Part shown: positions 960 to 60,850 of the stretch, piece after piece | Layout: the number at the start of each line of letters is the position of its first letter | Numbering within the stretch: position 1 is the first letter of the stretch | NCBI GenBank assembly: GCA_027603945.1 | Contig: JADIIU010000058.1 | Span: 17,864 to 81,863, forward strand | Direction: 5' to 3' | Origin: Terramyces sp. JEL0728 | Lineage: Eukaryota; Chytridiomycota; Chytridiomycetes; Rhizophydiales; Terramycetaceae | DNA: 64,000 nt | The notes under the pieces: generated by a model | The model's input: the letters and a program-made list of their open reading frames with translations, nothing else | Told to the model about the DNA's origin: nothing | The model's database searches: none | Made by a program: the position numbers and the translations under genes

Positions 960-3900
960 TTATTCTTCTTCCAAAAAACTGTCATTCATTTGAATTTCAT
1001 CCAAAGTCCCTCGATTCATGGTTACAGCGAGATTATTGTAAACCTCACTCATTTTAGGCTTTCCCTCCAGATACCTATCGATTTTTTCAAACTTGGTTAA
1101 TTCTTCATTCTCATTCACAGTCTACGTTAACAAAGTGTACCGCATAGTCGTGTTGAACTGTTGCTTGTTTGCCTTTGAATTTTACTTGGGAAGGTTTGCC
1201 ACATACTATACACCTGCATTAGCTTTAATTACCATAACTCGTAACCTTCGAACGAATCCTGGCTGACATGCTGTTGCGCCTTTTCCAGGGCAGATACCAA
1301 ACATATTGAATGAAAGGCATGATGGCATTTGAAAATTGCTATTTTATCTTGCTGCTCTTCGATGGTCATTGCTTTCAAGTGGAACAGCCTTCTGCACAGT
1401 TGGCATTGTCCAAGACTAGGATGGAACGACGACTTGCACTTTTGAACATACTCCCTGTACAACTCAAAACCAAATGAATTTGTCAAGGTAAGCGCTATTT
1501 CCAAAGTTTGCTTTTGATACGCAGTTGTCTCTAATAAATGGGTGATCAATTGGCGATACTTTCCAAACTCTGCTGTGGGCTGCGATTCAATCAAGTGAAT
1601 AAGAATCTTTGGTATGGGCAAATGGGCGATACACGCTTCCATTGCCTGAGATTTGATCTCAGTTACAAATTCCGAGGTATCCTCCAACGCAAAACAAATT
1701 CGATTCAGTAATTTAAGCCAGAGCTGGTGATTTGGAGTGTCCAATTCTGATAAACGGACTATATCCGCCAAGATATCGGCAGTTTTCTTTTTCATCTTTT
1801 TGATTTGATTGTCATTTTGGTCATTGTCCAACATCAAGTCTTCAACCTCCGTAAGTTGCGTCACTAGCAAATCCAAATACAAATCCACCACCTCGCCGTA
1901 ATTTCTGCTCTTTTCCAGCAACCAAATAGTTACTCTGTTCAACTTGAACTTTAAGCATAAATTTGTAACTAATTCCAAATGATAAGGTTCCTCCTTAAAG
2001 ATAGAATCTAGCCATTTCAAATATTTTAAAACTCCAGTTGGTTGGATTTCACACATTAATCCCAAATATTTATCATACAACGACTTTCCGAATTTTGGGA
2101 CAGAAGTTTGTGTTGATTTCTTGATTCCTATCAGCCCTCCAATATATTTAAATTGCAGTGATGACTGATCTTTTAATAGCTCAATGTTATCTTGGTGTTC
2201 ATGCGGCCACAAATCGTCATATAGTCCAACAATTTCGTATGTGCCATCTACCAAATCAGTTAAATGCTTTTGTATGGTTGTCTTGATTACTGCAGCGGTT
2301 TCCGGTTTTACGACGCTAATCCAGCCTCTTATTGCGGCAAACAAGGATGGCTTTCTATTTATGTCTGCAATGTATGATTCAATGGCTAAATCATAGCTTT
2401 CAACTTCCAGAACAGACTTTTCATACAATTTCCAAAAATTTGCCTTTCTGAAGGATTCCAGAAATCGTTCTCGATCTGATTCCTGCCTTTCTGGAATAAA
2501 TCCTCCGTCATATAGCGAAATAACTGCAATTTGTCGCTCTTCTGCTGTTTCCTTCAGCGGGCTGCTAACTAGAGCATTGAATATTTCCATTAGTTTCGCT
2601 TTTGAAATGTTCATGTATGCTCTATATTTACTATACGACCTGGCTACAAAGCTGAAAATTGCATCCACTTGCGCCTGTGACCATGAGTACGTTTCGATAA
2701 GGTGAAAACATACATTGATGATGTAATGGCGGGTAATAAGTAGGGAATCTTTATGCTTATCATCTTGAAGAGAAATCCCACTGTTTAACACCGGATTATC
2801 AAATACCGCTCCAGCCACTTTCAGCATTTCGTGTGTGTCCTTTTGCAATAGAAAGTACAGGTATGGCCATGGTTCTTTCCCTACTCTAAGCTCGTGTCCC
2901 TCTAGTTTGACATATGTAGGAGAACACAATATCCCAAAAATACTCCGGTACGCCAGATCTGCTGCTTCCAGCTCAAGTTCGCCGATTGGGAATGCTTTTC
3001 CTTGAAGGATATAAGCCAAGTACACAAACAGAGTGTAAAGCTCCTGCTCGCTATTTTCATTAGAATCAATTTTTTCAATTATTTCAAGTACAGGGAGCCC
3101 AAATTCCATTAAACCGCCATTGTATACATGAATAAGAGCACTGGTGAACCCCCATTCTTTACATAAATGGATGGTATTGTGCAGATCCATTGTTTTTGGA
3201 TCCAAGAGCAACAAAACTTGCTCCAGTCGACTCGCATTCTCTTGTGTTAGTTGTTCAAACATCATCTGAATAATCTGAGGGTTGGGAACGCTGGAGATTG
3301 TGCCATTTAGAATAAGGCCCTGTATAATAGAGTTGAAGATATTGAATAAAGAAACATCAACAAACCGCTCAAATATGTCTCCAAATATTAGGTCCAATCT
3401 GTTGATTGAAATGCAAGTTTCAATAATCAATGTTGCTGTGTCAAAATATATGGAGGGGTCTTCCAGATTAGAAAACCCGCTGAGTGACATTGATGTCAAG
3501 TTGAGAATTAATCCGGATAGATGTTCAGAGACTGCTTGCTCCCGCTCCTCTTTTTCAACTGGCACACCCAACACAACAATGGGATACTCTCCTTCAAACA
3601 ATTCAATGCCGTATTGGAAAGCTAACTTGAAATTGCCTGCTCGAATCAAGACTGCCAACCGCTCTTGCCAATGGAGCAGACTACCAAAACAAATTTCTTT
3701 GTCCGTCATTATGAATATTCTGTTGAAACTTGAGGATATATTGTGCTGTGGTGAAGGATGTAGCGGAATGATTTTCGGGATTGAGATATCCCAGGTATTT
3801 TCCAGCGGTCTATGGGTTGATATCTGAACAGATTCTATTCTTTTTGATAGCGTTGTATCATAGATTTCAAACTTTTGATCGACGGTGAGGCATAATATAA

Positions 3901-5350
3901 ACTAAATTAAGAAAGAGTACTTGGGAATTAATCCATTCAATAGCAGTTATTTCAAAATCAGTTTCAATTTGACAAGCAACGTTAAACAGCAGCTTCTTTG
4001 ACTGATCTTCTGCAGATTCCATTGTGGAATTCATATGGATAATACCCAGCTTCTTTCCATATGAAAACGCAAGCCTTGGCATCCTTTTTGTGCCGCCTTT
4101 TTGCGAATTAGGAACCCACCATCTGGTGCAAGAATACTCTACCGAGGTCTCTGCGTTCAATGAAGACCACATCACACGGTATTGGATCCTTGGGCTTGGT
4201 TTCATACTGAGAACAGCTAATTTGAAGGGAGAGGTCACAGCTATCAGGGATAATGCATCTCCAGGGAACTTTGCCTTTCCCTTTAGCAAAGGGGACATTG
4301 AAAAGATAGTAGTGTTGACCAATTCCGGATCATCTGGTGCTTTGAGTCTTCCATGTATGCGGTATGATTTGAATGTGCTATAAACTAGACGTTTGTAAAG
4401 TAGATGGTAATATGCAGCGCCTTGTTGGTTTGCAGAATAAAAAACATCTCTGGAATTGAATGCCAAGTGCGTTATTGCAATTCCCTTTAAATTTCCATCT
4501 CCTACACCAACTGGATCAATCGATTTCACCAACACCCGCTTTCTTATATCCCATAAAGAAATATGACCAGATTGGAACCCAGTAACTACTTGGGTCTGGT
4601 CCGGACATATATCAATTGCAGTAACCGGTCCATATTCCAGTGGTGATTCTAGTGTTGCCAGATGATTCTGAGCTAAATCATACAAAACCGTTTTAGAATC
4701 AACAGTCCCGACTGCAATTCCAGACGACACAGAAAAAACTGTAGGTTTATAGTGTCCAAACAAATTTAAAGAAAGCTCCCTAAATGAAGACCATCGAAAT
4801 ATCCCAGTTGGTCCTGGCGGGATTGAATTCAGCAAATCCTCCTGTAAATCTTTCATTTCTGGAGCAGTTCCAGAAGTTTTCAAAGATAGCCTGGAGGTTG
4901 AGTGCTTTAGCCCTAGTGTACTTCCTCGCCTAGACGGAGCACTCTGTCATAAGTTTTCTCTTACCAAGATTGAAGTGTCTGCAAATGAAATATCCTCCTG
5001 CAGTTCAGACTCGTTGTGCCTAATAAAATGCTGGTATAGTGAAATATCTCTTCCAATCCTTTCCAATAACAAAATCCCTTGATCTGAATCCTGCTGAATT
5101 ATCAGCTTCTGCAGATTCTCCAAATATGTACAAGTCTCTACCAAATCTTCTTTCAGGGTATCAATTAGCTGCATTTCTGGAATCAATGCCCTGGGATTAA
5201 GCTTTGTTACTTTAGGTACAATCCTTCTATCCGAGCGATATTTTCCAGACTGTTTGGTTCCGGGATGTCCCTTTCAATCGAAGTTTGTTCTGATTTCGAT
5301 ATCCCTTCCATTTTTAGATCTTCATCGTCTGATTCTGATATTAGCTCCAT
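960..5350 (-). CDS. VPS8: Vps8, CORVET endosomal tethering subunit
   Basis: Vps8 is the Rab5-binding subunit of the CORVET complex that tethers early endosomes. Six exons give 1430 residues, near the family size; introns are 5191-5210, 4944-4964, 3902-3920, 1214-1232 and 1122-1140 (19-21 nt). The N-terminal third has the WD40-type region (GHISLWDI, then LAFNSRDVF) typical of Vps8, followed by a long helical repeat region. A C-terminal RING-like finger lies at about residues 1295-1360: CQLC, CHHAFHSICL, then CIVCGKP in the following exon. Without splicing, the frame stops before the last zinc ligands. The start ATG at 5350 is the only one that joins cleanly to the first intron. Vps8 rather than Vps41 or Vps18 is chosen from the WD40 motif wording and C-terminal finger. 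Confidence 0.88.
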
Positions 5351-5411
5351 TATTGGTGATTGAAATGTAAAGCCAAAATTTCAAAGTCGTTCGAATAAAT
5401 ATTTATTAAAA

Positions 5412-6979: not shown

Positions 6980-7153
6980 ACAGGAAAATTAACAATGCAA
7001 GAAATTATATTATCAATTGGAGCTATGAAAACCACTCGCATGAGACGGGCTACCCGATAATGTCACTTTGGGAATAATAAATCAATAATAACGGGCAAAC
7101 GCAAATTGGAGTGCTTCCTCAAGGTTGCCGACTGTGCCGCCATTCTAATTGCA

Positions 7154-7792
7154 TCAATTAAGCGGTGAGATGATTATTAGAAAGGTCGACGTACAATTAA
7201 CAGCAGTTTCCACTCCACCTTTTGTAAGGGTAAAGTAGCTTTCCACTGACTTTAAAAAATCCAAATCTGTAGGTATTACTTGTGCAGTCATTCCCCATCT
7301 TGTTAATAAATAATCAATATTTCGCTTGCTGCTGCGTTCGTGGTAAGATGTGATAAACATGCAGTTTTTGTTTTTCTGAAATATCTGGTAAACAGCAGCT
7401 ATCAAGGGTTCAAATAGCGGAGGGTCATAAAACAAATCAGATCCAATTATATAATCATAATCCTCGGATTGATAACTTTTTAGCCAGTCCAACTCCTTCA
7501 CCTGTGCCGATAATCCATTGGCAACCACACATTCCCTCAAATTGGGCAATATGTCGCTCTTGTCTGTCATTACTACACTACACCCCAGCTTTGAAGCAAT
7601 CATTCCAGGTATCCCTACTCCAGCACCCAATTCAACAATCTTTTTATTTCGAAAGAGTTCCAGGTTTGCAATAATGAAATAACACAGTAAATATGCTGAC
7701 GGCCATATGTAATTTCCAAATGGAGCGTCCAGTATTTCGTTGAATTTCACCTTGATTTTCAGTTTCTTTACTTTAATTTCACAGGTCTGCAT
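7154..7792 (-). CDS. METTL23-like protein methyltransferase (family 16)
   Basis: A single-exon frame of 212 residues with a seven-beta-strand SAM-dependent methyltransferase fold. Visible motifs: PFGNYIWPSAYLL before the SAM domain, motif I IVELGAGVGIPGM, an acidic MTDKSD at strand 2, and the post-strand-4 motif GSDLFYDPP. SYHERSS resembles the YQERS wording I associate with METTL23. Members of this family methylate lysine or arginine in proteins; the substrate here cannot be read from sequence. The frame ends IIISPLN at a TGA. A coding-looking stretch just downstream (about 7060-7135, minus strand) cannot be joined with an intron of the usual size, so I end the gene at 7154. Confidence 0.75.
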   Translation of the reverse strand: MQTCEIKVKKLKIKVKFNEILDAPFGNYIWPSAYLLCYFIIANLELFRNKKIVELGAGVGIPGMIASKLGCSVVMTDKSDILPNLRECVVANGLSAQVKELDWLKSYQSEDYDYIIGSDLFYDPPLFEPLIAAVYQIFQKNKNCMFITSYHERSSKRNIDYLLTRWGMTAQVIPTDLDFLKSVESYFTLTKGGVETAVNCTSTFLIIISPLN

Positions 7793-7919
7793 CTACAAAA
7801 TTGGAAACTTTTACAGCAGATAAAGTATTAAAAGACATCTATCGATGCTGAACAGAGATGCAACTGACAATAACATCATTTAACACGTTATGTCATTCGA
7901 TTAAGTCTAAAATTTTACT

Positions 7920-8459
7920 ATGGGCAACCCGATATTTGTAGAAAAGAATGCTTTAGAAAAGTTAGAATACCCATCAGGAAGTATGCGCACAACCAGGCGT
8001 CAAGAGGACGCAAACAATCACCCAATCCAGACACTGATGGAAAGACACCATCCTGTGGATGCTGACGAGCTGGAAGATATGATTATTAGGCAGCTACAAC
8101 CGCGATCTTTCTCTTTGCTGTTTGGCCAAGAGCGCCAAGAAGAAGATTCGATGGAAACGGCAATGGGAAGACTTCGCAGACAGTTGAGACAATCTACAGC
8201 TAGGCTTGCTGAGCAGGTCACTCTTACTCATAGAAATAGTAGCATTGAAGCTAGAGACAGATTAGAAATGGATAGAATGTTTAGAAGAGTGCGCCAAGAA
8301 CGAAGAAATGAAAATATGCTATTTCAAAATGCAATATACAGGTGGAATATGAGAGATAGACAAGAAAGTGATATTGATATTTCTAGAAATGAAGCTTTAG
8401 AAAGGCTATACGAAAGGCAAAGGCAACGCGGGGTCGATCCCCGATTTGAGATTCCCTAA
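7920..8459 (+). CDS. Hypothetical Arg/Glu-rich protein, 179 residues
   Basis: An intact frame from ATG to TAA with no intron. The protein is very rich in Arg, Glu and Gln and is predicted helical over most of its length (for example MGRLRRQLRQSTARLAEQV and RMFRRVRQERRNENMLF). It lacks hydrophobic segments and cysteines. I do not recognise a family. It starts MGNP, but residue 6 is Phe rather than Ser/Thr, so N-myristoylation is not well supported. It is divergent from the methyltransferase gene (128 nt apart) and its stop lies 30 nt from the convergent kinase stop. Length, frame integrity and placement suggest a real gene. Confidence 0.55.
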   Translation: MGNPIFVEKNALEKLEYPSGSMRTTRRQEDANNHPIQTLMERHHPVDADELEDMIIRQLQPRSFSLLFGQERQEEDSMETAMGRLRRQLRQSTARLAEQVTLTHRNSSIEARDRLEMDRMFRRVRQERRNENMLFQNAIYRWNMRDRQESDIDISRNEALERLYERQRQRGVDPRFEIP

Positions 8460-8489
8460 TGCATTAGAAATAAACAATATATTACAAAT

Positions 8490-9530
8490 TTACAATTCCA
8501 TTTCAAAAATAGTGCTTTCGCTATCGACACTTGGCTTGATCTTTTCTTCAAAGCTATCATTGGGCAGCAGTTTGGATGGGCTCTTTGTATAACGTTCTGG
8601 GAAAAATGTCTGTTCGTCTGGTGAGATTGGAGTGAGTGGTAAATATTTGACAGGAATACAGTGGCAGAAATATCCAGATATTTCGCTAAATGCTGTGTGC
8701 AACTGAGCTGCTGTTGGGCGGCAAAACGGATCTAAGTGGAATATACTTCGCAACAGCTTGCAGATTTGTGGAGAAAAGCCAAACTTTTCCTGAAAAGTGT
8801 CCTGGAGCTCTTCAGAGTAAATGTGATGTTGAAAATGCTTGTCCTTGTCTGATGCCATATTCCACGGGTTCTTTGCCGTCAATAGATTAATCAAAATGAT
8901 TCCCAGCGACCACACATCATTTGCAGCGGGATGATAGGACAGTGGTATAGACTCTTCTCCTCTAGCCTCTGGAGACAGGTAGCAGGCACTCCCACAGCCA
9001 AAATCAGAGGACAAATCATCGGTAGTAGCCAGCCCAAAATCACACAACTTTATATTGTTATTCAATAAAAGTATGTTTTCAGGTTTCAAATCTCTGTGAA
9101 AGACACCTTTTTCATGACAATGAGCAACTGCGCCAGTCAATTGCAGAAAGAGTTTTTTAACCGTTGATTCATCCATTTTTTCGTTTAGTATGTAGTCAAA
9201 CAAGTCGCGATCACAGTACTCCAAGACCATGTATCTATAGTGGTGTGTTTCAATGACTTCCAATAGGCTGATGATATTTGACTGTCCAGCAACCGTTTTC
9301 ATAAACAAAATCTCCTCGTACTGGATATCTAACTGGTTTTTCGATAGCCCTTGTTTGTACAGACACTTTACTGCGTACTTTTTCTGCGAAAGTACGTTTT
9401 GGGCGAGAAATACAACGGCAAAAGAGCCTTCGCCGAGTATAGATATGATTTGAAGATTTTTAGAAACAAATTCACCCAGCTGAGTATGAGGATCAAGGTA
9501 ATCTTTCATTGTTTTGGCAAACTTTCCCAT
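8490..9530 (-). CDS. Ran1/Ksp1-like serine/threonine protein kinase
   Basis: A single-exon kinase of 346 residues. The glycine loop is GEGSFAVVF, the ATP lysine is in YAVKC, the catalytic loop is HRDLKPEN, the metal site is DFG, and the activation segment is GCGSACYLSPE. The GCGS...YLSPE wording with a short glycine-loop-proximal N-terminus matches the fungal Ran1/Sks1/Vhs1 group, which links nutrient state to meiosis and growth. All catalytic residues are present, so it should be active. About 60 residues after the kinase domain are Ser/Pro-rich with no domain. The start ATG at 9530 gives MGKFAKTMKDYL just before the kinase domain. No intron is needed. Confidence 0.82.
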   Translation of the reverse strand: MGKFAKTMKDYLDPHTQLGEFVSKNLQIISILGEGSFAVVFLAQNVLSQKKYAVKCLYKQGLSKNQLDIQYEEILFMKTVAGQSNIISLLEVIETHHYRYMVLEYCDRDLFDYILNEKMDESTVKKLFLQLTGAVAHCHEKGVFHRDLKPENILLLNNNIKLCDFGLATTDDLSSDFGCGSACYLSPEARGEESIPLSYHPAANDVWSLGIILINLLTAKNPWNMASDKDKHFQHHIYSEELQDTFQEKFGFSPQICKLLRSIFHLDPFCRPTAAQLHTAFSEISGYFCHCIPVKYLPLTPISPDEQTFFPERYTKSPSKLLPNDSFEEKIKPSVDSESTIFEMEL

Positions 9531-9555
9531 TCAATTTATACCAATCGACATTTTC

Positions 9556-13807: not shown

Positions 13808-15130
13808 ATGCCAATAAAAGAACCTCTTATGCAGCAGCTCTCTGATTTTTACAAGGACAACTCTCTGTACTCTTCACTCGACATAAACTCCTATGAACAA
13901 TTAACAGCCTCAGAAATGGCTCAATTTGTGCTCTCAGTTCCGGAAAAGCTGGACGTAGTACTAGAAGACAAGTCGCTTGAAATTACACCTTTGGGGAGCT
14001 TTGAAATATGGAGTGTATTTTGTATTTAATTTAGACTGATCAAACACCACCGCCAAAATTTATTACTAGGAAAACAATAGTAAACAGAAAGGAATTCTAC
14101 GGTTGGCTTGATTCATTTGGTAAATTGCAAGTACCTATCGAGAAGGTAGAATGCAGGATTTTCTCTGGCGGACTGGAACCAAGTATCAGGGGCGAATGCT
14201 ATAAATTCCTTTTAGGAGTATATCCTTGGATGTCAACGACAGCAGAACGTAATACATATAGGGAAATCAACAAGAATACTTATTCAAGATACAAATTACA
14301 ATGGCAGACGATTCTAAGCCAAAAGAATAATTACTTGCACACCCAATACCAGGAGAATCTGTTTCGGATTGAAAAAGATGTTGTAAGAACAGATAGAAAT
14401 CATTCATTTTACCCAACAGTCGATTCTGCAGATCCATCGAAAATGATTTCCAAATGTCCGAAAATGACTTTGTTGCGAGATATATTAATGACATTTACCA
14501 GCAGCTTTCCCAATAATGAACCTGGGTTTGTGCAAGGGATGGCAGATTTGTGCTCTCCGTTGTTAATTCATATTGAAGATGAAAGTGAGGCGTTTTGGTG
14601 TTTTGCAGGATTAATGAGCAAGAAAAATGAAAATTTCAATAACGACGGAGCAGGTACATCCTATTAATACAGGTATCAAGAGACAATTGGAATTACTACG
14701 CAAGCTGGTCAAAACCATGGATTTGCCACTGTACACTAAATTGAATGAAATTGGATCAACGAACTTGTTTTGTGCGTTCAGATGGATCCTTGTCTTGTTT
14801 AAACGAGAGTTTCCATTTGAACATACGATGAAGTTATGGGATGCTTGTTTCTCCAACTATTACACCACCGATTTCCACATTTTCATCTGTTTAACAGTAC
14901 TGGAAACATATAGAAACGAAATCATTGGTAGTATTGAGGATACTGACGAATTACTATGTGTAATCACTTTTTTAAACTAGTTTGTCCATGGACTAAGTAA
15001 TAAGATGGATTGCGATTTGATATTGGCTTCCGCAGAAGATTTGTTTTTGCAATTCAAAAAGATTTGTAAAGCTCAAGGGTCCTTGCAGGATGGGCGGATG
15101 GATTTGCAAAAGACTCTGCAGTCATTTTAA
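13808..15130 (+). CDS. TBC-domain Rab GTPase-activating protein (TBC1D15/Gyp7 type)
   Basis: Four exons give 420 residues; introns are 14015-14034, 14654-14672 and 14960-14980. TBC motifs are complete: FSGGLEPSIRGECYKFLLG (domain start), the arginine-finger motif IEKDVVRTDR, the glutamine-finger FVQGMADL, EAFWCFAGLM, and NLFCAFRWILVLFKREF. The FKREF/F and dual-finger wording fit the TBC1D15/16/17 and yeast Gyp7 subgroup, which act on Rab7/Ypt7-type GTPases. Only about 100 residues precede the TBC domain, so the N-terminal Rab-binding domain of TBC1D15 is absent or lies in unrecognised upstream exons (13586-13807 has no clear coding). The second and third introns fall inside the catalytic domain and are essential to the model. 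Confidence 0.85.
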
Positions 15131-40228: not shown

Positions 40229-42940
40229 ATGACCGGGGAAAAAAATAAGAATGCTGCACGAGTTCGCAGTGCTACTGGCCCAACTGCGATGTATCCGGGT
40301 TGGAAGCCGTCTCCAGAAATCGCAGCCAGATGGAAGAAACTGACCGCATCCAAGGAGCTTACCGAGGAACACATTCAAGAGGAATTCGTCAATCATGCAA
40401 CTAAAACTTTAGCGCGAAGTGCTTTTAATATGGACGACTTTGCAGCATATCAATCGTCTGCTTATAGCGTTAGAGATCAATTGATCGATCAGTGGAACAC
40501 TACCCAGATGTTCCATACTACTGTCTCTCCAAAAAGGGTGTATTACCTTTCGCTTGAATTTTTGATTGGCAGAAGTATGGACAATGCTCTTTTAAACCTT
40601 GGCGTGAAAGATCGCTATGCAGGTGCAATTGACAAACTCGGATTTAACTTGGAAGATCTAGTTGAACAAGAAACGGATGCGGCTTTGGGAAATGGTGGTT
40701 TGGGACGCTTAGCTGCTTGTTTCATGGACAGTTTGGCTACGTTGGATTATCCAGGTTCATATTTATTAATGATAGCTTGGGGCTATGGCATCCGTTATAA
40801 CTATGGTATCTTTGAGCAAAGCATTGTAGACGGATACCAAACTGAACACCCGGATTACTGGTTAACCTTTGGCAACCCTTGGGAGATTCAAAGATTGGAT
40901 ATCAATTATCAAGTAGCTTTTGGAGGTACAGTTATTCGCTCCAAGGGAGCATCAGGTGGATTCGTTTACACTTGGGAACCTACCGAAAGGGTAGTAGCTG
41001 TAGCGCACGATTTCCCTATTCCAGGGTTTGGTACTAAATCCACGATTAACATTCGTTTATGGAGCTCAAAACCATCCAACGAATTCGATTTCGCAAGTTT
41101 CAATGCTGGTGAATATGAAAAATCAGTAAAGGAACAAACTGATGCCGAAAATATTACATCCTGCTTGTATCCAAACGATAATCATTATATTGGCAAGAAA
41201 CTAAGATTGAAGCAACAATACTTTTTTGTTTGTGCAACATTGCAAGATATTATCCGCAGGTTTAAGAAGACTGGCGAACCATGGTCAGAATTTCCGAACC
41301 ATGTTGCAATCCAATTGAATGACACACACCCAACAATTGGTATTGTGGAATTGCAACGTATCTTGGTTGATGAGGAAGGACTTGACTGGGATGGTGCCTG
41401 GAAAATTGTAACAAAAGTCTATTCTTGTAAGCCTATTCTAACCGTAGATACAAACCACACTGTTTTGCCAGAAGCGTTGGAAAAGTGGACTGTGCCGTTG
41501 CTCAAAGAATTGTTGCCGAGGCACATGATGATTATTTTCGATATCAACCTCTTCTTTTTGCAATCTATTGAACGCAAGTATCCTGGAGATCGTGAAAAGC
41601 TTAGTAGAATGTCTATTATTGAAGAAGGCGTCCCCCAATCTGTAAGAATGGCCTATTTGGCCGTTGTGTGTTGCCACACAGTCAATGGGGTTGCCGAATT
41701 GCATTCAGAACTTGTACAGAAGCAGCTCTTTTCTGAATTTGTTGAATATTTTGGAAAAGATAGGTTTACAAATGTTACCAACGGAGTAACTCCTCGCAGA
41801 TGGCTTCACCAAGCAAACCCCAAACTCAGTGCACTTATTACAAAGACTTTGAAAAGTCAACACTGGTTGAAAGATCTCTCAGACTTGGCAAAATTGAAAG
41901 CTTTTGCCACCAACCCTGACTTTCAAAACCGCTGGATGGAAATCAAAGCTGCAAACAAAAAGCGTCTTGCTGAACATATTGCTGCACATTGTAATGTCTA
42001 TGTCAATCCTGACGCAATCTTTGATGTTCAAGTAAATTAATGCTAATCCAAAGTGCAAGCGTATCCATGAATACAAAAGACAATTTATGAATATTTTGCA
42101 AGTCATTCATCGATATGAAGAATTGCAGAAAATGTCGAACGAAGAGCTTGCCAAGCAAGTACCTCGTGTGGTTATCTTTGCGGGCAAGAGTGCTCCAGGA
42201 TACTACATTGCCAAAATGGTTATCAAGTTGATCAACAATGCAGCTAATGTAATCAACTATAACATGAGAACGTCCAAACATCTTCAGCTTGTTTTCATTC
42301 CAAACTATAATGTCTCGTTAGCAGGTAGATAGCCTTAACCTCAGAAATCATTATCCCTGCAAGTGATATTTCCCAACATATTTCAACAGCAGGCACTGAA
42401 GCTTCTGGAACATCCAACATGAAGTTTGTGTTGAATGGCGGTTTAATTGTTGGCACTGTTGATGGTGCCAATATTGAAATTGGGGAAGAAACTGGAGCGG
42501 ATAATATCTTTTTATTTGGAGTGCTCACCCCTGAAGTTGAAGATATTCGTCACAGGCAAACTTATGGTTCTGGAATTAAAGTCGACCCAAAACTGGAGTC
42601 TGTGGTTGAATCAATCAGAGATGGAAATTATGGCCAGCCTGCAATCTTTGAACCGTTGTTGCGTAAGTATTACTAATCGTAGAAACGTTGTCAACCGACC
42701 ACTACTTGCTCCACTCTGACTTTTCAGATTGTAAATTAGTTATTCATCTTAGATATTGATACAATGAAAAAGGTGGATAAATGCTTCCAAAACAAATCCG
42801 AATGGGCTAAAAAGTCGATTCTCGCTGCAGCAAGTATGGGTAAATTCAGCAGTGACAGGTGAGTTATTATTAATGCAAGATCCATTCATGACTACGCAAA
42901 AAATATTTGGCACATTACCCCGCACCCACCCCCTGAATAA
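40229..42940 (+). CDS. GPH1: Glycogen phosphorylase
   Basis: The enzyme releases glucose-1-phosphate from glycogen using pyridoxal phosphate. Seven exons give 861 residues (yeast Gph1 902); introns are 41427-41447, 42032-42053, 42325-42344, 42663-42682, 42731-42752 and 42859-42879. Family landmarks are all present: [85 protein letters not shown], and [10 protein letters not shown] with the PLP lysine. The first intron (21 nt) has no in-frame stop: leaving it in inserts seven residues (KPILTVD plus a Cys change) inside the invariant [11 protein letters not shown]. The gene is divergent from the RING gene (215 nt). Confidence 0.96.
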
Positions 42941-47996: not shown

Positions 47997-48023
47997 AGAA
48001 TTTTGGAATAACTTTTTTTTCAA

Positions 48024-49903: not shown

Positions 49904-51200
49904 ATGGAGCAACTTTCAAGTACGAATCTTGCAGGGTTCAAAATTCCCGATGATGGATGGTCAACATATACATCAGAGATTCAGAGTGAAGTTGAGGATT
50001 CAATTCTAGAGTATTATTTTAAAGATCATAACTAGTATTTTTGTATTTATTGCTAGCAAATTAAATAGGAAGAAGCATATCAGATATTTGAACAGTGTCC
50101 TGGACGAAGGGTTATCGAAATGGTTTGTTGCTCTGGTACTCTATATTAATTCTAGGATGCCTCTAAGCCGTGGTTGATTTACTGGATATTTCACTCTTTG
50201 GATCTTTTAGGAAGTGAAATTGATCTATCCTTAAAGGAAAGGTGATTGAAATTAACTCAGAGCTCTAGAAACGCTAAACAGCTGTCAGAACCAGGATGGT
50301 GGATATTCAGGAGGCAAAGGACAAATTTCGCATTTAGCAACCACATACGCTGCAGTAAATGCAATCGCGGTTATAGGGACTGCCGATGCTTACGATTCAG
50401 TTGACAGAAATGCTTTATATTCATTTTTGATGCAGGTAAAACAGCCAGATGGATCCTTTAAGATGCACAACGACGGAGAAGTTGATATCAGAGGATCTTA
50501 TTGCGCAGTCAACGTTGCAGTGTTGTTGAATATCCTTACGCCAGAGCTAATTGAAGGAGTACCCGAGTTTATTGCAAAATGCCAAACATATGAAGGCGGA
50601 TTAGGGTCAGTTCCGTTTTCAGAGGCACATGGTGGATATACCTACTGTGGGCTTGCAGCATTAACTTTTTTGGATAAGGTACATTTACTAGACATTGATG
50701 CCGTTCTTGATTGGACATTGTCGAGACAAATGCAGTGTGAAGGAGGGTTCCAAGGAAGGGTAAATAAGCTTGTTGATGGGTGCTATTCATTTTGGCAAGG
50801 AGGTGCGTGCGCATTGTTGGAGCTATATTTAAGCAAGCAAAAAGGTAATTTCCTTCTTACAAAGTATCCAAAATTTTTGACAGAGGTATAGTTGGACTAA
50901 TTTAGTACGGCTTCAAGAATATACACTGGTATGCTGTCAATCTGACGGGGGTGGTCTCAGAGATAAACCTGGAAAGTTTATAGATTTAATTTTAGGTCTC
51001 CCGATTACTACCATACTTGCTATTGCCTAAGTGGATTGTCGATCTGCCAGAACTACTTTATCTATGCAAATGGGGAATTACAGGTTGAAGATGCGAGTGA
51101 TGTCCTTTCCAAAGACACAAACATGTTGAAACGAATTCACCCAGTTCACAATATCAGCCTTGACAAAGTGGATGCGATTAAGGTACATTTCCACAAATAA
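49904..51200 (+). CDS. RAM1: Protein farnesyltransferase beta subunit
   Basis: The zinc enzyme adds farnesyl to C-terminal CAAX cysteines of Ras, a-type pheromones and others. Seven exons give 391 residues; introns are 50035-50056, 50136-50155, 50242-50260, 50845-50864, 50886-50905 and 50976-50995. Landmarks: KKHIRYLN, DASKPWLIYWIFHSLDLL, CQNQDGGYSGGKGQ, YAAVNAIAVIGT, KQPDGSFKMH, CQTYEGGLGSVP, EAHGGYTYCGLAAL, RQMQCEGGFQGR and DGCYSFWQGG. The zinc ligands Asp/Cys (DGCYSFW region) and His (YYHTCYCLSGLS) are present. Exon 5 (50865-50885) is only 21 nt and sits between two 20-nt introns. The DDG...WS.. start matches farnesyl- rather than geranylgeranyltransferase. Confidence 0.93.
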
Positions 51201-51218
51201 TCCGAATAAAAGCTTATA

Positions 51219-52666
51219 TTATAATGATATCTTATCCTTTTGTTGATAATAAGATGACAGGTCGATTGCAATTGTGATTATCCCGATTATAATTTCAAAT
51301 GCTGTGTCAATTATTCAGTTACCAATGAGAATAATTACAATCCATTCCAGCTGCTCACCATGAGAAGAGTTCAAATGCTCCTTCAGCATATCCAATAAAT
51401 CAGATATCACACCTACGCGCTGGTTCAGTAATTCAACTCTAAATGTTAGTGCCAGCTACCTTTGAGATATTTCCAGGTAGCCTCTTATAGCCCTGTACAG
51501 AGGTTCAAGCGCTGGCTCACTCCAAAATATTTCTGGCGTGTCGAGCACATTCGATACCAAATTGACATTGATTCTCATTATAAACAACTGTCCAATTTTC
51601 TGGTTTATCGCCATTCGAGACATGTGGATCTTTCCATCTTTTGCCATCTTTCGCGGTATGTGCTTGGTTGATTCAATAGTTTCTTCAATTAACCCCTCAA
51701 ACAGTGTCAACTTTACAGACTGTGCAATTGCATGCGAAATGGTAATCTTTAGCATGAAATTTGCCGGGTTCTTTAAGGTGATTATATCGTTGTAAATTCT
51801 TGGTTGGTAGAACGCTGAGTAAAAGATAAGTTACAATTGTAATGAAAGTAAAACTGTTCAGTTTCAACGGAATCGTTTTCTAGATAAGTATAATTTACCG
51901 ATTACATCTTCTTGGAATTGTGCAATATCATCTAGTATCCGAATTTCTTCTTCCTCTGTGAACCCCCAGAGTACAATCACACCATAGTCAAAAATCAAAA
52001 CTTCTCCTATCGGTGCAATCCTTTTGGCCAAATCTCCATAAGAAATATCTGCTGGTATTAATTTTCCGGAAGCGTCAATATTTTGTTCAAAGAAATTGTC
52101 TGCTTCTTGGATAGAGGCAGGGTGTGAATGTTCCGCTGAAACTGAAATCATATCTGGAATAATGGCCTGCTGCGCATCCAGCTCAATGATCGGATCAAAA
52201 GTAAATGGAGTGTAAATTACTTTGTAAGTTAACAGTAACCTTCATCAAAGCGCTTTGGGGCTGCTCTATGGATATGATTTTTCATCCGCAAATCTTCCAT
52301 TATCTTATCCATCTTGTACGAACTTTTTAATCAATTGTTACTTTGCAGTGCAATAAGCTGTTACGCGAGGAAGCCATTTCCGTTCAAGCTTGCTCAACCT
52401 GAGTAAAAATTATTATACCATTGCTCCTTTTGAGTCTTTGCTGTTACGTGAGGCAGCTGTGATTCATCTTCAAGTGCGGGATCAAAATCGCTGGGGTCAG
52501 TAAACCCTTCAGGAAATAAAGTTAGCTTCTGTGAAGTTTTTGTTGTTCTTTTTGGCAATCGCTGCTGCTCCTTTTTCTGAACCTGCGAATTTGAAATTGT
52601 TATCCCGCCTGATGTTGTGGGCAATAGAGGCTCTTCTTCAGATTGTCTGTGATTCCTTTTCGACAT
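51219..52666 (-). CDS. DUF155 (Rmd1/Rmd8/Sif2-type) membrane protein
   Basis: Eight exons give 435 residues; introns are 52399-52418, 52323-52341, 52220-52239, 51880-51898, 51815-51834, 51439-51459 and 51302-51322. The DUF155 core is unmistakable: RVTAYCTA, EVLIFDYGVIVLWGF, FYQPRIYNDIITL, ISHAIAQSVKLTLFEGLIEE, TKHIPRKMA, NLVSNVLDTPEIFWSEP, LEPLYRAIRGYLEISQRVEL. A single C-terminal transmembrane helix (WIVIILIAFEIIIGIITIAI) is built only after the last intron is removed. Family members include yeast Rmd1/Rmd8 and mitochondrial RMND1; lack of a presequence and an MSKRNHR start favour the non-mitochondrial group. The molecular role is unknown. Its stop lies 18 nt from the convergent RAM1 stop. 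Confidence 0.9.
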
Positions 52667-52705
52667 TTTAGCTACAGGTAAAAAAATTAATCAATATCGA
52701 TTTAT

Positions 52706-55205
52706 TCAAGCGTATTGAAAGTCCCAAGTAGCGAACCACTTTCTGGTTCTTAAGGTTGGAACATCAGGGTACCCAGTTCCATAGCAGAATGGCATAAAGT
52801 AATAGAATGATGCGAAAATAGCTAGAATGACAACAAATACTGCAACCATAAACTTGATTCCGCCTTGTCCGCCGTGCCATTTCACCATCGGTGTATTTTT
52901 TGGAATATGTGACAGAGGCTTCATAAATGATCTGCCTAGGAAATCAAAAAGCGTAGCGAATGCAATAGTAGAGAAGATATAAGCAGGCATATAATGATGC
53001 AAAAACAACTGTCTTCCCATTAAGAAAAACGGAATCCAGTGCAATAACCATGCAATGCACATAAATCCAATTGATTTATCCCACCACTGTCTGACTGCAG
53101 GGCCAAAGTCGTCAATACCTCTTCGCAATAGAATCCGGTCAACCAACCACATTGCAAAGTAAAATAGCGGGCCGATTATAGATAACCACCAGGCAATTGG
53201 ATTTCCAATCAAATAAATCTGTTTGACGCCTTCCTTCTTTTCCCAAAAGGAAATCCCCCTAATGACGAACGGCCAAGTAATGGGTGATGATGAATAAGGA
53301 TGTGAAGAAGTCAGGGCGTTGTTATGATGAATCATCAATCCCTGGAGTTCAAAGAATTTCTTCAAGAATGACATTGTTGGTTTGTTTTTTGGTTTTTCTT
53401 TTTCTACACTTAGGTTAATAGTACCTGCAACAATTTTTTCATGTTTAACATCCTGAATAGTCCAGTGGTTGGATTTTTGGGCAGTCTTTTTATTGCCGTT
53501 TATCTCTTGCATGCTGAATCCCCAATCTGGCAGTTTTTCCTTTGAGGTGAACAATGCTACGTTGTGCTTGGCACTTTGAATGACAATTGTACTCTTCTTG
53601 CTCTTGACTCGCTTTTTCTTATCTTTGTTATCGCTGATATAAATTTTCCAAACAGTGTCGTTGTACCTTGAAAGTGCTTTTTCAGGATCAAGCGTGGTCA
53701 CTTCCATGTTAGTTGTCGTCAAAGGGGATGCTACATCATGTGTAATCAAATAAGTATTTGTAGAAACGTGTCTTAAACGGACATAACAGTCATGTCTGAC
53801 ATATCTAATGCCCCTCTTCTTTTCTTCGTCTGAGAGTTCGACCTTTTCTGGGAAATATTCAGTTTCCACAGGTAGGATTTGCCAATACGAATTGTTGTCA
53901 AAATGAGCATACGCGTTCACTTGCTGGCCGTTTGAAGAGACTCTTCCGCTATCATAACGCAATGGATATACATGTTCGTGTGAGTGCAAAAAGTGGTTAG
54001 TTCCGGAGTGTGCAATCGTTATATTTGAGAAATACAACACATCTACCTATTAGTACTATATACCAGTAGCGCCAGCAGTTTTTACATTCCCTGATAACGT
54101 TTCTTGGAATTCCAAACTCATGAAAGCGTCTCCTGGTCCACTGGTGGTCAAAATTGCAAAGTGAATGTAGAAAGGGACCAAATATAGAAATATTGGTAGT
54201 GCTATTAAACACAATGCCCTTGCAGAAAAATGTTTGAAAAAGATTTTCTACATTAAAACGTTCTTACCACATCCTTATTTCTATTTATATCTAGAATTTC
54301 CCACAAATCATAAAGAGTAGCAATCCCTACTGTTGCAACCGTAAATAAGCCCACCAATTTGACCCTTTAATTATTCAAAACTTACCCCAGCACCAAAGCG
54401 AGGCCGACGCCAGTCATTGATAGCCAAAACCACCATTCAAAAGAAAAAGATCTGCGGTTAACCAAAGCTTACTTGTGACGAACTGTTTGAAATTTGACCC
54501 AAAAATAGATGGCAGTAATACAAAATAGCATTAACATACTGTCAAGCAGAATTAAGCGGGATTGTGTAGTTAAAGCGGTATCTTATCATTAGTTCTACCT
54601 TTACCAAAAACCAGCATCAGAGATCCAAGCAAACAGCCAGCAACTGAAACCCCAAGTTCTTTCATAATCAAAAATGCAATTGGCACAACCGCTGCACCGC
54701 AAGTAGCACACCATAAACGCAATGCAATATACGGCACGTTGTTTTCAGCGTAATTATCTCCAATACTGTCAAATAGGAAATGCCCATTGTATCCAACCAA
54801 CTTGCCAATGAGGGCAATCAATAGTTTTCCAAGTGGAGGGTGCACATCGAAATAATATTCACCGCGTAAATAATACGATGCAAATTTTCCAAAGTGAACT
54901 TCGTCGAAAACGACTTCCCCAGGATGATGAATCATCCAAGAACGAGTAAGTATTGCCAACAACGACACTATATAAAGCGCAATTTTGTATGCAAAATCAT
55001 TGTTTCTCGTTGCTCTAATGCCTGCTGGAATTGCTTTTTCTGGCAAAATATTTGGTTGCACTGTTTCCGACACAATCGCTTTTTGCGGTGATGCTAACAG
55101 CAAAGGTGCCTTTACATCTTCTTTTACTGGACTAGACTCTCTCGATGCTGTGGAATCTTTTTTCGAGGGATTCTTATCCTTTTTTCGCTGCTTCACTGAT
55201 GACAT
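52706..55205 (-). CDS. PMT4: Protein O-mannosyltransferase, Pmt4/POMT1 type
   Basis: It transfers mannose from dolichyl-phosphate-mannose to Ser/Thr in the ER lumen. Six exons give 797 residues; introns are 54582-54604, 54452-54472, 54365-54385, 54248-54267 and 54043-54063. The catalytic Asp-Glu loop is VVFDEVHFGKF, followed by YYFDVHPPLGKLL. Several transmembrane helices, then a lumenal MIR region (LHSHEHVYPLRYDSGRVSSN, DCYVRLRHVSTN, KHNVALFTS) and a C-terminal block of helices (WWLSIIGPLFYFAMWLV) follow. GVKLVGLFTVATVGIATL and TQSRLILLDSML appear only after splicing. Pmt4 rather than Pmt1/2 is suggested by LHSHEHVYPLRY. Residues 1-75 are Lys/Ser-rich cytosolic sequence. Confidence 0.92.
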
Positions 55206-55219
55206 GCAAAAAGCAAATT

Positions 55220-57169: not shown

Positions 57170-57275
57170 ATGATTTTTTTGTTTGAATTGCTAGTATTCT
57201 CTCTTTCTAGCAGGTTGTAGTTCATTTTGAAAATTTATACAATTAATATTTCATTGTCTTTTAAAACTCCCTGCA

Positions 57276-60200
57276 ATGAATGACTCAACTTTAAAATCTC
57301 TAGGCATAAGTTCTAAAGTTTCCTCCAAGGCATTCACGTTATCTCCACCATTCTCAAAAGGAAATAAGACATACCATGCGATTGTAGAATCTAAGGTTGA
57401 TTGTATGTTCTAGCTAACTCGCAGCAATAAAAGTAAAGGCTATCTGCACCGAATCGGACGCCTTCTGCCAGGTTCAAAGGATGGATAAAGACGGGGTTGT
57501 TTCACTAGTACAGGGAAACAATACGGTTGAAATTGTAGTCGATGCACCAGATGGCTCCAAATCAAAGTATGAAATTAATGTTTACCGGCCTGGAGGTATA
57601 TACTATATATTAACTGCGTAGATTTGGATATTTCTTTGAAAGAGATAATAGTTCCCGATAGTTTGAAACTAATTCCATCATTCTCCCCAACTGAAACAGA
57701 ATATTATGTTGATGTTCCTGTAGGGGTTGAAAATTTCGAATGCAAAATAATCCCAATGAATTCCTTGAGCAGTGTGGAAATAATCGCAAATGGCGATGAA
57801 AATAGGCTGTTTTCTGGAGATACTATTTTTCAATTCAAAGTAATTTCTGAAAGCAAATCTAAAGAAGAATTGTACACAATTGTAGTGAGAAAAGGTAAAG
57901 TATATATTTAAATCATAGAAAAAACTTTTTTCAGACCCACTATTGCAAACGAATATTTAACATGCGCTGCTTGTTGTTGTGTGCTTTTCCAACCGAGGAA
58001 GCCCTTCCCGTGTGGTCATACCTATTGCCAAGCTTGTGCTAGTATATTCTTGAAGTCTGAATACAACGCATCCAACAAAGTTGAGTTTTTCTGTATCGTG
58101 TGCAACTCAAAATCCTCGGATATATCTAAAACTTCAGACAGCCAAAAAGAAAAAGAAATTGCGCAATGCCAATTCAATTGTCCATTTGGATGTTCGTCTA
58201 TGTTGTCAGTAAAATCTATAATCTCTCACATTCAGTTATGTGAACTCTCAGTGTTTACGTGTTCCGCTTGTGATGCACTTGACTTTTGTTGCAATCAAGA
58301 GAAACATAAAGGCAGTTGCTATTATTCGTGTTTGAAGTGTAACAAGAAAATTTCCAAAGTAGAAGAATTAGTGCACAATTTCAATTGCAATTTAAAATCT
58401 GAACCGGAGACAAGTTTGAAAATGAAAGAAATTAATCCAATCGAATTAAGTTTAGTTAACAAATCAAAATACAGATACGATATTGAAAATGTACTTGGAA
58501 AAGTGGACAGTTCACTATCAAGTTATGCGAAAAGTTTGAGTGCTACTTGGGAATCGACTATTCGTTGTAAAGGACAAAATTTTAATCAGCCAAGAAAGGA
58601 AGAACTCACTGAAGCCATTCAAATGACGGCAACAATGTTGTCGTTTGAAAGAGAACAAAATAATCTGAGCAACAAAACTCCAGACGGAAAATTACTCTTG
58701 ACATTTGGCAAAGTGTTGACAGAGTTGGATTTTCTTCAAACATGGTTCCCAGATTTTGAAATTGCAAAGAAAATCCAGGATGAAAACGATCAAGCGAAAG
58801 ACAGCTTCTACCAAGATGAAATTGTTGGATTGCTATTACAGCTGGGGATCTCTCCGTCTGCAAATGAAAATATCAAAATCAAAGCCATGGAAGGGGAATA
58901 TCATCGGTTGAAAAATGAAGGCAAAACCAATGAGGTAATGTCAATCCTTCTCACATAGGCGACTGAAATACAAGAACTCATCAACTGGAAGTTGAATTCC
59001 ATGAAAAAGGATCCAGTCAACTCATATGGTAAAGAAGGAAACAATGTAAAATTTAACACCTTAATAGGAGATATATATGGTGAACTAGCCAAGTTTCATC
59101 CTCAAATGCACGAAGGAGTGTAACTGTCCAATACTAATATAGTTTATCAGTAGCTCTTTGGCATTTTAACAATAGCCATTTTGCATTATCACAAGTGTAT
59201 GCCTCCAGCGCTTGTAGTATTCTTCCAGGCTGTTTAAAGTCTCAAGTAGTTTGGGCAGTTTCTTACATTTTAGCTGTCGATGATTTGCAAAAGATTGAAG
59301 AAAAGAAATTGGAAGCTGCAATGTGTTTTTTAGAGAAGTATTGGAAACTGTTGATTCAGAATATCTCAACTCCAGTGAATAATTTGGATAGAAACCCTCT
59401 ACTACAAGAATATTATGGGTTTTCGAAATTGAATATTGCCATCTTTGTCGCTTTATCCAAAGGGTTTACATTTACATCCAAAATTGCAAAAGGGATTAAC
59501 TCACTTCTCAACCTGAATTATGTGCTTCCGTCCATTATGAATATTTGCCCAAAAAAGTCTCAAGGATTTCAATGGTTAGCAGGAGAATATTGCCGAGTGC
59601 AGAATGAAATTTATGAATTGTTATATTTTGCCGAAAACGATGATGGAAAAGCTCTCAAATTAAAACTACAATCAAGTCTCTACAAAATTGCATCGTCATT
59701 ATTGGACAGCTCAAATATCAATTTCAAGTACCAAATTTGTCAAACTTTTTTATTGCACAATTTCGAAAACCTTGGCAATCTTTGCAACTTGGGTTCCTGC
59801 CAATTCCAACTTTACGAAATGAGTAATAATTTTGAGTTTTTGACATTGGCTGAACAATCATTTCTAGGTGCTTTAAAACTTGAAGGTGGAGGAAAGCCAG
59901 ATGAAATTAAACAACAATCGTGGTGGTTAGCACTTGAAAAGAGGGTTACTAATATCAAAAAATTGAATTTAGTCCGTCAACCACCTGTGATGAAAACTGG
60001 CAAACCACTGAAAGATTCTAAATCGAACCAAGCGGAAGAAGTAAAAGGGAAAAAAGCAGGGGCAATTGGAATCAGTAAATTACCTTTGGTTAGCAAACAA
60101 GCTTCCACCAAACCAATTTCAAATTCAACAGAAAAGTCTGGGCAAAACAAGAAAACTATAGAACCGAAACCTCAAAAATCTGGGGAAAAAAAGTCAGATT

Positions 60201-60850
60201 CTAAATTGGTAGCAGCATCGTCAACAAAGGCCGGTACACGTAGCAAGCCTACTTCCAACCCGCCAAATAAAACTTTAAATACAGATGAACTGCCGTCTGA
60301 GCAAATCAAAGATACAGAGAACATCCCGTCAAGCTCCAAAAGTATTCAAGCCAGAGTGGGACTAGCAAAGGTTTACAATGCAATGGTGACGCATAATTCA
60401 GCAGAGTATGAAAATTTAAATCAAGAACAACAGATAATGCTTCAAAATGCTATTCAATTCTACACAGAAGCAGTTGAATTAGATAAGTCCAACCTAGATG
60501 CGTATATTGATTTAGGGAATATTCTGATTAAACAAAAGAACGAGATTGCAGCAGTGAATATCTTTTGTGAGTTTCCATTCCAAACCATACCTAGTCAGGA
60601 TGAACTATATCTGCACACCGAAATCAACCGGCTTTTCATCAAGCACAAACAATACAAAAACCCAAAATTATTGAACAGTTTGGTCTTAGAAGGGAAAGCG
60701 AACGGAATCAAAAGCTTATCCAATTATGTTGACGCAATGGATGCTGCTGGAGAATCCAAGTTATTGATGAAGTTGTATTCCATGGTAAGTGGCAAGGACG
60801 AGCAAGATTCTGATATGATTAACTTTTTTAAATCCAAATTCTGGCTGTAA
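57276..60850 (+). CDS. Cadherin-like beta-sandwich, RING/TRAF and TPR protein
   Basis: Six exons give 1151 residues; introns are 57403-57424, 57596-57621, 57895-57918, 58935-58958 and 59120-59142 (22-26 nt, longer than elsewhere). Residues 1-195 are two cadherin-like beta-sandwich repeats (LKSLGISSKVSSKAFTLSP, then ISLKEIIVPDSLKLIPSFS). A RING finger follows (LTCAACCCVLFQP, PCGHTYCQACA, FCIVC), then TRAF-type zinc fingers (CPFGCSSML, HIQLCELSVFTCSAC). A helical region, a Lys/Ser-rich linker and TPR-like repeats (AVELDKSNLDAYIDLGNILI) complete it. It ends FFKSKFWL. This would suit an E3 ligase with two interaction modules, but I do not know a named protein with this order. A 96-nt intron at 60785-60880 is possible but less likely. 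Confidence 0.75.

What the first reader, a model, noticed from the sequence alone, without database searches (positions are those of the whole stretch)
960..60850. Genome-wide ultrashort spliceosomal introns of 19-26 nt
In 20 of the protein genes I place 84 introns. Lengths are 19 to 26 nt with a mode of 20; 16 are 19 nt. Examples are gtactctttcttaatttag (3902-3920, VPS8) and gtacatcctattaatacag (14654-14672, TBC). Removing each restores a conserved motif across the joint, and every spliced coding length is a multiple of three. These are among the shortest known for spliceosomal introns, comparable with ciliates and chlorarachniophyte nucleomorphs, and far shorter than usual fungal introns (about 50-100 nt). 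A spliceosome in a free-living-size fungal genome that works on 19-nt introns is notable.
Basis: partly seen in the sequence, partly recalled or inferred. Interest (0 to 1): 0.9.

Follow-up and report, generated by a model that had tools for sequence, protein, structure and literature searches.

The report
A chytrid fungus with 20-letter introns
A chytrid fungus interrupts its genes with introns of only about 19 to 23 letters, close to the smallest known anywhere, so it could serve as a fungal system for asking how short an intron the splicing machinery can handle.

Summary
The window matches a contig of Terramyces sp. JEL0728, a chytrid with a 15.0 Mb assembly. Protein homologs fix 40 intron sites at 19-23 nt in eight conserved genes. 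One further site is 64 nt and is tiled exactly by three abutting units (22, 21, 21 nt); two stretches were ambiguous. A gene finder without length or motif preference shows a spike at 19-21 nt (52 of 163). Among 256 boundary dinucleotide pairs, GT..AG gives most gaps of 19-22 nt (59; median 5). The branch site is YTNAY, usually 13-14 nt from the 5' splice site. U2 and U5 snRNA, Prp8, SF1 and U2AF65 are present; U1 and U6 were not found. Similar sizes are published for heterotrich ciliates, mikrocytids and chlorarachniophyte nucleomorphs; ten searches of an open-licence library showed no fungal case in their (partly capped) lists. The public model of this genome's own PMT gene drops four conserved exons. 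No RNA data were available.

The parts
40755..40775 (+). intron, 21 nt, glycogen phosphorylase
   Evidence: restored in 38 of 40 homolog alignments
41427..41447 (+). intron, 21 nt, glycogen phosphorylase
   Evidence: 40 of 40
42032..42053 (+). intron, 22 nt, glycogen phosphorylase
   Evidence: 39 of 40
42325..42344 (+). intron, 20 nt, glycogen phosphorylase
   Evidence: 36 of 40
42663..42682 (+). intron, 20 nt, glycogen phosphorylase; the Boothiomyces JEL0838 protein lacks the 48-nt exon between this intron and the next, giving a 90-nt gap on window DNA
   Evidence: 35 of 40
42731..42752 (+). intron, 22 nt, glycogen phosphorylase
   Evidence: 35 of 40
42859..42879 (+). intron, 21 nt, glycogen phosphorylase
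   Evidence: 34 of 40; the gene finder wrongly chose 42840-42858
54043..54063 (-). intron, 21 nt, protein O-mannosyltransferase (PMT)
   Evidence: 32 of 40; 5 of 40 chose a 24-nt GC..AG alternative
54248..54267 (-). intron, 20 nt, PMT
   Evidence: 33 of 40; 5 of 40 chose a 23-nt alternative
54365..54385 (-). intron, 21 nt, PMT
   Evidence: 37 of 40
54452..54472 (-). intron, 21 nt, PMT
   Evidence: 35 of 40
54582..54604 (-). intron, 23 nt, PMT
   Evidence: 36 of 40; missed by the gene finder
51302..51322 (-). intron, 21 nt, RMD1/DUF155 gene
   Evidence: 35 of 40
51439..51459 (-). intron, 21 nt, RMD1/DUF155 gene
   Evidence: 38 of 40
51815..51834 (-). intron, 20 nt, RMD1/DUF155 gene
   Evidence: 39 of 40
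51880..51898 (-). intron, 19 nt, RMD1/DUF155 gene
   Evidence: 39 of 40
52220..52239 (-). intron, 20 nt, RMD1/DUF155 gene
   Evidence: 32 of 40
52323..52341 (-). intron, 19 nt, RMD1/DUF155 gene
   Evidence: 37 of 40
52399..52418 (-). intron, 20 nt, RMD1/DUF155 gene
   Evidence: 33 of 40
50035..50056 (+). intron, 22 nt, farnesyltransferase beta (FNTB)
   Evidence: gene finder and spliced alignment of the top PDB FTase-beta sequence agree
50136..50155 (+). intron, 20 nt, FNTB
50242..50260 (+). intron, 19 nt, FNTB
50976..50995 (+). intron, 20 nt, FNTB
   Evidence: gene finder; lies between the ORF with the VPS8 beta-propeller and the ORF with the Vps8 TPR domain
54043..54598 (-). 556-nt intron implied by the public protein HDV01_006126 (P0121); it swallows four conserved exons between five short introns

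Best explanation
These are U2-type (major) spliceosomal introns of a chytrid matching Terramyces sp. JEL0728. In the places sampled they have a narrow length range, 19-23 nt at all but one of the sites that homology fixes clearly. They are removed from the pre-mRNA by a spliceosome whose core is conserved. Shown: borders, lengths, GT-AG ends, branch motif and near-fixed spacing, and that U2 and U5 snRNA and the Prp8, SF1 and U2AF65 genes are present. Inferred: that the spliceosome removes them in vivo. Also inferred is the reason for the lower edge: 13 nt before the branch A, the A itself and 5 nt after it make exactly 19 nt. I propose that this is the sum of two abutting contacts, the 5' splice-site helix (about 6-7 nt) and the U2 branch helix (about 6 nt; contact sizes recalled), with no linker. 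U1 and U2 could then not sit side by side as in human complexes, so recognition would have to be sequential.
For: 40 sites of 19-23 nt fixed by homology in eight genes: GPH 7, PMT 5, RMD1 7, CCT6 6, AP2A 5, TOP1 4, FNTB 4, PRP8 2 (lengths 19:8, 20:14, 21:13, 22:3, 23:2). No-prior spike, 52 of 163 at 19-21 nt. With a flat length prior from 12 to 60 nt, 246 of 404 calls are 19-22 nt, with 0 at 17, 3 at 16 and 7 at 18. GT..AG gives the most 19-22 nt gaps of 256 pairs (59 of 142; next 29). Branch A with 13-14 nt upstream in 48 of 55 introns called without length or motif prior, and 13-15 nt in 18 of 19 homology introns; 272 of 375 at 13-14 in the trained set. U2 snRNA at 140 bits with GTAGTA, U5 at 86 bits, Prp8, SF1, U2AF65; predicted Prp8, SF1 and U2AF65 genes carry such introns themselves. 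P0241, a 445-aa protein 78% identical to RMD1, comes from contigs of at most 1407 nt, too short to hold the coding sequence plus seven such introns, and spans all seven sites, as a transcript of a relative would.
Against: No RNA reads. U1 and U6 snRNA were not found; 5S rRNA was not found either, so the assembly may lack such genes, but U6 stays unexplained. In one search GT..AG is not first by total coding score (7044; AA..AT 7316), a measure that favours frequent AT-rich dinucleotides. The flat-prior finder also gave 9 calls of 15 nt and 8 of 12-14 nt, and the aligner one 17-nt intron in AP2A; I think these are errors, but they blur the edge at 19. 39 of 375 trained introns have a weak branch motif. 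The trained finder's spacing is biased by its own acceptor profile (hence). The footprint explanation is untested.
Confidence: 0.92

Rival explanations
1. Assembly or sequencing indel errors, or frameshifted pseudogenes, that happen to fit GT..AG.
For: No raw reads were seen; some predicted introns are wrong.
Against: Errors have no fixed length, branch motif or GT..AG preference; GT..AG gives 59 gaps of 19-22 nt against a median of 5 over 256 pairs, and 32-40 of 40 homologs agree on each of 19 sites.
Confidence: 0.01
2. Segments removed by another route: DNA elimination as in ciliates, translational bypassing, or RNA excision without the spliceosome.
For: Lengths overlap those of some eliminated or bypassed elements (recalled, not tested).
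Against: GT..AG ends, a YTNAY branch site at near-fixed distance and a matching U2 snRNA are spliceosomal features; SF1, U2AF65 and Prp8 are kept.
Confidence: 0.02
3. Minor (U12-type) introns.
For: Some branch regions read TTAAC.
Against: The 5' splice site is GTAATT-like rather than the extended U12 consensus (recalled), and there is no long conserved branch element. U11, U12 and U6atac were not searched for in the whole genome.
Confidence: 0.01
4. Real spliceosomal introns, but the spacing floor has another cause (clearance of branching factors, lariat bending, or mutational shrinkage to a threshold) rather than abutting snRNA footprints.
For: PMC9505925 (passages) proposes steric-clash avoidance with altered Cwc25 and Isy1 N-termini in Stentor. 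Here local alignments of the reconstructed Isy1 to the eight matched PDB sequences start only at residue 32-41 (one of the eight is a 92-aa fragment). PMC10245619 (passages) discusses neutral shrinkage to a functional threshold.
Against: The Isy1 N-terminus rests on an uncertain model, no chytrid with ordinary introns was compared, and Cwc25 was not looked for.
Confidence: 0.4

Closest known systems
Heterotrich ciliate introns (Stentor coeruleus), PMC9505925: abstract and passages read
   Same: Tiny GU..AG introns throughout a genome; branch A at position 10 of 15, leaving 5 nt after it, the same 3' spacing as the commonest here; commonest intron GUAAUUUUUAUAUAG; U2AF2 and Prp8 kept
   Different: 15-16 nt there, 19-23 nt here; no strong branch consensus there, strong YTNAY here; 9 nt before the branch A there, 13-14 nt here; ciliate, not fungus
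Chlorarachniophyte nucleomorph introns (18-21 nt), as described in PMC10245619: passages read
   Same: Nearly the same length range; intron-rich
   Different: A remnant endosymbiont nucleus with an extremely reduced genome; here a 15 Mb fungal genome
Mikrocytid introns (16-17 nt), PMC10245619: passages read
   Same: Narrow length range and conserved sequence
   Different: Highly reduced spliceosome and 224 introns in M. mackini; here an extrapolated 20,000 or so introns
Paramecium and Nyctotherus introns (about 25 nt), PMC5014332: start of abstract in search listing only
   Same: Only ultrashort introns
   Different: Slightly longer; ciliates
Short-intron fungi such as Cryptococcus neoformans (mean 63 bp), PMC8476143: passages read
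   Same: Fungal, many introns
   Different: Three times longer; that survey bp relatively short

Membership tests
U2-type spliceosomal introns | GT..AG boundaries | tested here: met
   most 19-22 nt gaps of 256 dinucleotide pairs, though not first by total score; the spliced aligner allowed only GT/GC..AG
U2-type spliceosomal introns | branch site complementary to U2 snRNA | tested here: met
   T at -2 in 0.97 and A in 0.98 of 375, 39 weak sites; U2 carries GTAGTA; 52 of 55 no-prior introns have a clear site
U2-type spliceosomal introns | core spliceosome present (U2, U5, Prp8, SF1, U2AF65) | tested here: met
   U2AF65 stays below the TIGR01642 cut-off in the unspliced six-frame search but the spliced prediction matches PDB U2AF65
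U2-type spliceosomal introns | U1 and U6 snRNA present | tested here: inconclusive
   U1: no match; U6: two sub-threshold hits in a duplicated stretch, judged spurious, and two patterns without a U6-like match
U2-type spliceosomal introns | removed from mature mRNA | not testable with these tools
   no RNA data; indirect support from P0241
Ultrashort-intron genomes (ciliates, nucleomorphs, mikrocytids) | narrow length range below about 26 nt | tested here: met
   40 sites of 19-23 nt against one of 64 nt, with two ambiguous stretches; 375 of 398 finder calls are 18-26 nt, with a length prior that favours this
Ultrashort-intron genomes (ciliates, nucleomorphs, mikrocytids) | throughout the genome | tested here: met
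   window plus 20 stretches on 20 other contigs, 1.8% of the genome
U12-type introns | extended U12 5' splice site and branch element | tested here: not met
   consensus GTAATT and short YTNAY branch; the U12 consensus itself is recalled

The most novel reading that the evidence does not exclude
The spliceosome of this fungus works with a ruler: it takes introns of about 19-26 nt with the branch A 13-15 nt from the 5' splice site and cannot remove longer ones in one step. Longer introns would survive only if tiled by abutting units with zero-length or minute exons and removed in successive rounds, as the 64-nt TOP1 intron (22+21+21 nt) and perhaps the 65-nt Isy1 stretch (20+1+20+3+21) suggest.
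Probability: 0.1. Interest if true: 0.9.

Novelty: new member of a known kind. Interest (0 to 1): 0.7.

Why it matters
Human splicing is reported to need about 50 nt between 5' splice site and branch site, with 52 nt estimated from the human B complex (PMC6692369, passages read). This fungus appears to splice with 13-14 nt. Fungi are close to the yeast systems in which splicing is best studied, so a chytrid with 19-nt introns would let one ask which part of assembly is dispensable or remodelled. It adds a lineage, in the opisthokonts, to the few with introns near the lower limit. Practically, all four named Terramycetaceae proteins compared here (three genes) miss conserved residues next to tiny introns, so proteomes of this family should be re-predicted with the minimum intron size set to about 15 nt.

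Tried and rejected
U6 was sought with the Rfam model and two patterns; the hits looked spurious. An intron-split U6 was considered and could not be tested with the searches left. U1: no match. RED_N (PF07808), a factor required for short 5'SS-branch distances in human extracts (PMC6692369): no hit, but no control rang either, so absence is not shown. 15-16 nt introns: 12 flat-prior calls, 9 of them 15 nt, plus one 15-nt call in SF1 in a variable stretch; none confirmed, not claimed. 18-nt introns: 7 calls or 9, none in a gene tested by homology; uncertain. AP2A: the aligner chose 17 nt, the finder 20 nt at the same place; not counted. FNTB: one 22-nt intron (aligner) or two of 20 nt (finder) in a poorly conserved stretch; not counted. 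PMT 53404-53424 (21 nt): 2 of 40 homologs only; not counted. Alignment introns of 56, 76, 88 and 108 nt in poorly conserved parts of TOP1, many scattered ones at the PMT N-terminus and near its C-terminus, each in at most 4 of 40, and a 91-nt one in 3 of 40 for RMD1 were dropped as artefacts. The first CCT6 intron call lies outside the alignment and was not counted. Tiling of longer introns as a rule: 1 of 71 flat-prior introns of 36-110 nt is tiled, and that one is part of the TOP1 stretch; most of the 71 are probably false.
Full report
What it is. The window is bases 17864-81863 of contig C58 in a genome of 15,016,339 bases and 231 contigs. The best hit of the window's PMT protein is HDV01_006126 of Terramyces sp. 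JEL0728, on a contig of 81,863 bases, equal to the last base of the window; aligned to the window it is identical throughout, apart from implying a 556-nt intron. The glycogen phosphorylase fragment is 93% identical to Boothiomyces sp. JEL0838 and 78% to Globomyces pollinis-pini. Terramyces and Boothiomyces are in Terramycetaceae, Rhizophydiales. That they are free-living saprotrophs is recalled.

Homology evidence. A spliced protein-to-DNA aligner with a flat intron cost, no length or motif preference and GT/GC..AG ends was written. Applied to the first 40 of 120 listed homologs for each of three genes it returned 19 well-supported introns: 7 in glycogen phosphorylase (20-22 nt), 5 in protein O-mannosyltransferase (20-23 nt) and 7 in RMD1 (19-21 nt), each in 32-40 of 40 alignments. 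Sequences taken from the top PDB alignments added CCT6 (6), AP2A (5), TOP1 (4), FNTB (4) and the Prp8 N-terminus (2). Total: 40 sites of 19-23 nt (19:8, 20:14, 21:13, 22:3, 23:2). One more site, in TOP1, is 64 nt long, and two stretches (AP2A 17 or 20 nt; FNTB one or two introns) were ambiguous. What was left out is listed under Tried and rejected.

Unbiased evidence. A coding-model gene finder with GT..AG, constant cost and lengths 10-300 gave 163 gaps in 59 genes of 264 kb, 52 of them 19-21 nt; the rest are spread thinly. Repeated for all 256 pairs of boundary dinucleotides (lengths to 120), GT..AG gave 59 gaps of 19-22 nt of 142; the median pair gave 5; the runner-up, TA..GA with 29, looks like the same gaps shifted by one base. 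By total coding score GT..AG is not first (7044 against 7316 for AA..AT), which I attribute to AT-rich dinucleotides being commoner. Adding a splice motif but a flat length prior from 12 to 60 nt gave 404 calls in 88 genes: 64, 105, 56 and 21 at 19-22 nt; 7, 0, 3 and 9 at 18, 17, 16 and 15 nt. A trained version, whose length prior favours short introns, gave 398 calls in 117 genes, 348 at 19-22 nt. It is not fully accurate: 21 of 25 short calls in four genes agree with homology.

Anatomy. Consensus: AAG|GTAATTT...YTNAY...YAG. Position +5 is T in 0.41 and G in 0.21. The branch A has 13 (141) or 14 (131) nt before it in 375 introns, and 5 (141), 6 (143) or 7 (34) nt after it; 39 of 375 have a weak motif. 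Because the finder's acceptor profile includes the branch, this was repeated on sets free of that bias: 48 of 55 no-prior introns have 13-14 nt before the A (3 had no clear site), and 18 of 19 homology introns have 13-15. The smallest common case, 13+1+5, is 19 nt, where the length distribution rises. Stentor introns place the A at position 10 of 15 (PMC9505925), again 5 nt before the end, so the 3' spacing is shared and the 5' spacing differs.

Machinery. U2 snRNA (140 bits, branch-binding GTAGTA) and U5 (86 bits) are present. The predicted Prp8 matches human Prp8 without a gap through two introns of 20 and 19 nt. SF1 has its KH and SF1-HH parts. U2AF65 has RRM1, RRM2 and the C-terminal domain, although 5-7 nt after the branch leaves no room for a polypyrimidine tract. 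U1, U6 and 5S were not found; I treat this as unexplained. RED gave no hit, without a positive control.

Mechanism. Reported human requirements are about 50 nt between 5' splice site and branch site, and an estimated 52 nt for the B complex (PMC6692369). Thirteen nt is far below this. I infer that the floor equals the 5' splice-site helix plus the upstream part of the branch helix, and that U1 and U2 act in turn rather than side by side. This is a proposal. A rival is adaptation of branching factors: PMC9505925 reports non-conserved Isy1 and Cwc25 N-termini in Stentor, and local alignments of the Isy1 reconstructed here start only at residue 32-41, but its N-terminal gene model is uncertain.

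Annotation. HDV01_006126, the public protein of this genome's own PMT gene, replaces five tiny introns and four conserved exons by one 556-nt intron. Three proteins of relatives, whose own DNA I did not see, also miss conserved residues beside these sites: Boothiomyces JEL0838 phosphorylase lacks a 16-residue exon, B. macroporosus PMT lacks about a dozen residues at one junction, and B. macroporosus RMD1 (labelled partial) lacks two exons, a 174-nt gap on window DNA. These are the four named Terramycetaceae proteins I compared; their faults are most simply explained by tiny introns there too, which needs their DNA.

Literature. Ten searches of an open-licence library listed no report of introns this short in a fungus; four listings were capped and one search was for strain names. 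The 2022 PNAS paper on zoosporic fungi (recalled) was not held. A survey of 644 fungal genomes calls a 63-bp mean relatively short (PMC8476143, passages). PMC13391722 (passages) says nothing on intron length. PMC10245619 (passages) lists 15-16, 16-17 and 18-21 nt for heterotrich ciliates, mikrocytids and nucleomorphs.

A lead. The TOP1 intron (L017:3842-3905) is tiled without remainder by three GT..AG units of 22, 21 and 21 nt; 5 of 4042 GTA..AG control segments of 36-110 nt can be tiled. Isy1 has three units separated by 1 and 3 nt; removing each unit, or the first unit plus a 44-nt intron, keeps the frame, whereas removing all 65 nt at once meets a stop. Abutting pairs in 264 kb number 5 against 0.4 in shuffles, but the real sequence holds nearly twice as many units (915 against 489), two of the five pairs are the TOP1 triplet, and one is refuted by homology. 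This may be chance, ordinary single introns, or stepwise removal.

Noticed in passing
L017:3842-3905: The 64-nt intron of the TOP1 gene is exactly tiled by three abutting GT..AG units (22, 21, 21 nt), as if zero-length exons separated them.
   Followed up: partly
L042, minus strand, 1229-1293 (strand coordinates): Start of the Isy1 gene: three strong intron-like units of 20, 20 and 21 nt separated by 1 and 3 nt; removing each keeps the frame, as does the first unit plus a 44-nt intron; removing all 65 nt does not.
   Followed up: partly
L019, minus strand, 9312-9355 (strand coordinates): Two abutting strong units of 23 and 21 nt, not inside a gene listed for L019.
   Followed up: no
G000 (whole genome): U1, U6 and 5S RNA genes not found although U2 and U5 are; missing from the assembly, divergent, or (U6) perhaps split by introns.
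   Followed up: partly
L021 and L022 (contigs C199 and C111): Two contigs share a stretch of 3.1 kb at 98.9% identity; it gave the spurious U6 hits.
   Followed up: partly
P0241: Unnamed 445-aa protein from contigs of at most 1407 nt, 78% identical to the window's RMD1, spanning all seven intron sites; probably a transcript of a relative.
   Followed up: partly
window:53404-53424: Possible 21-nt intron in PMT: the Boothiomyces macroporosus and Globomyces proteins lack these residues, while the public model of this genome reads through.
   Followed up: partly
window:61209-61283: tRNA-Phe (GAA), the only tRNA that ARAGORN reports in the window.
   Followed up: no
window:33047-37951: Long predicted gene with a near-exact repeated peptide (STGKIEAKSVQSL) in its protein.
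   Followed up: no
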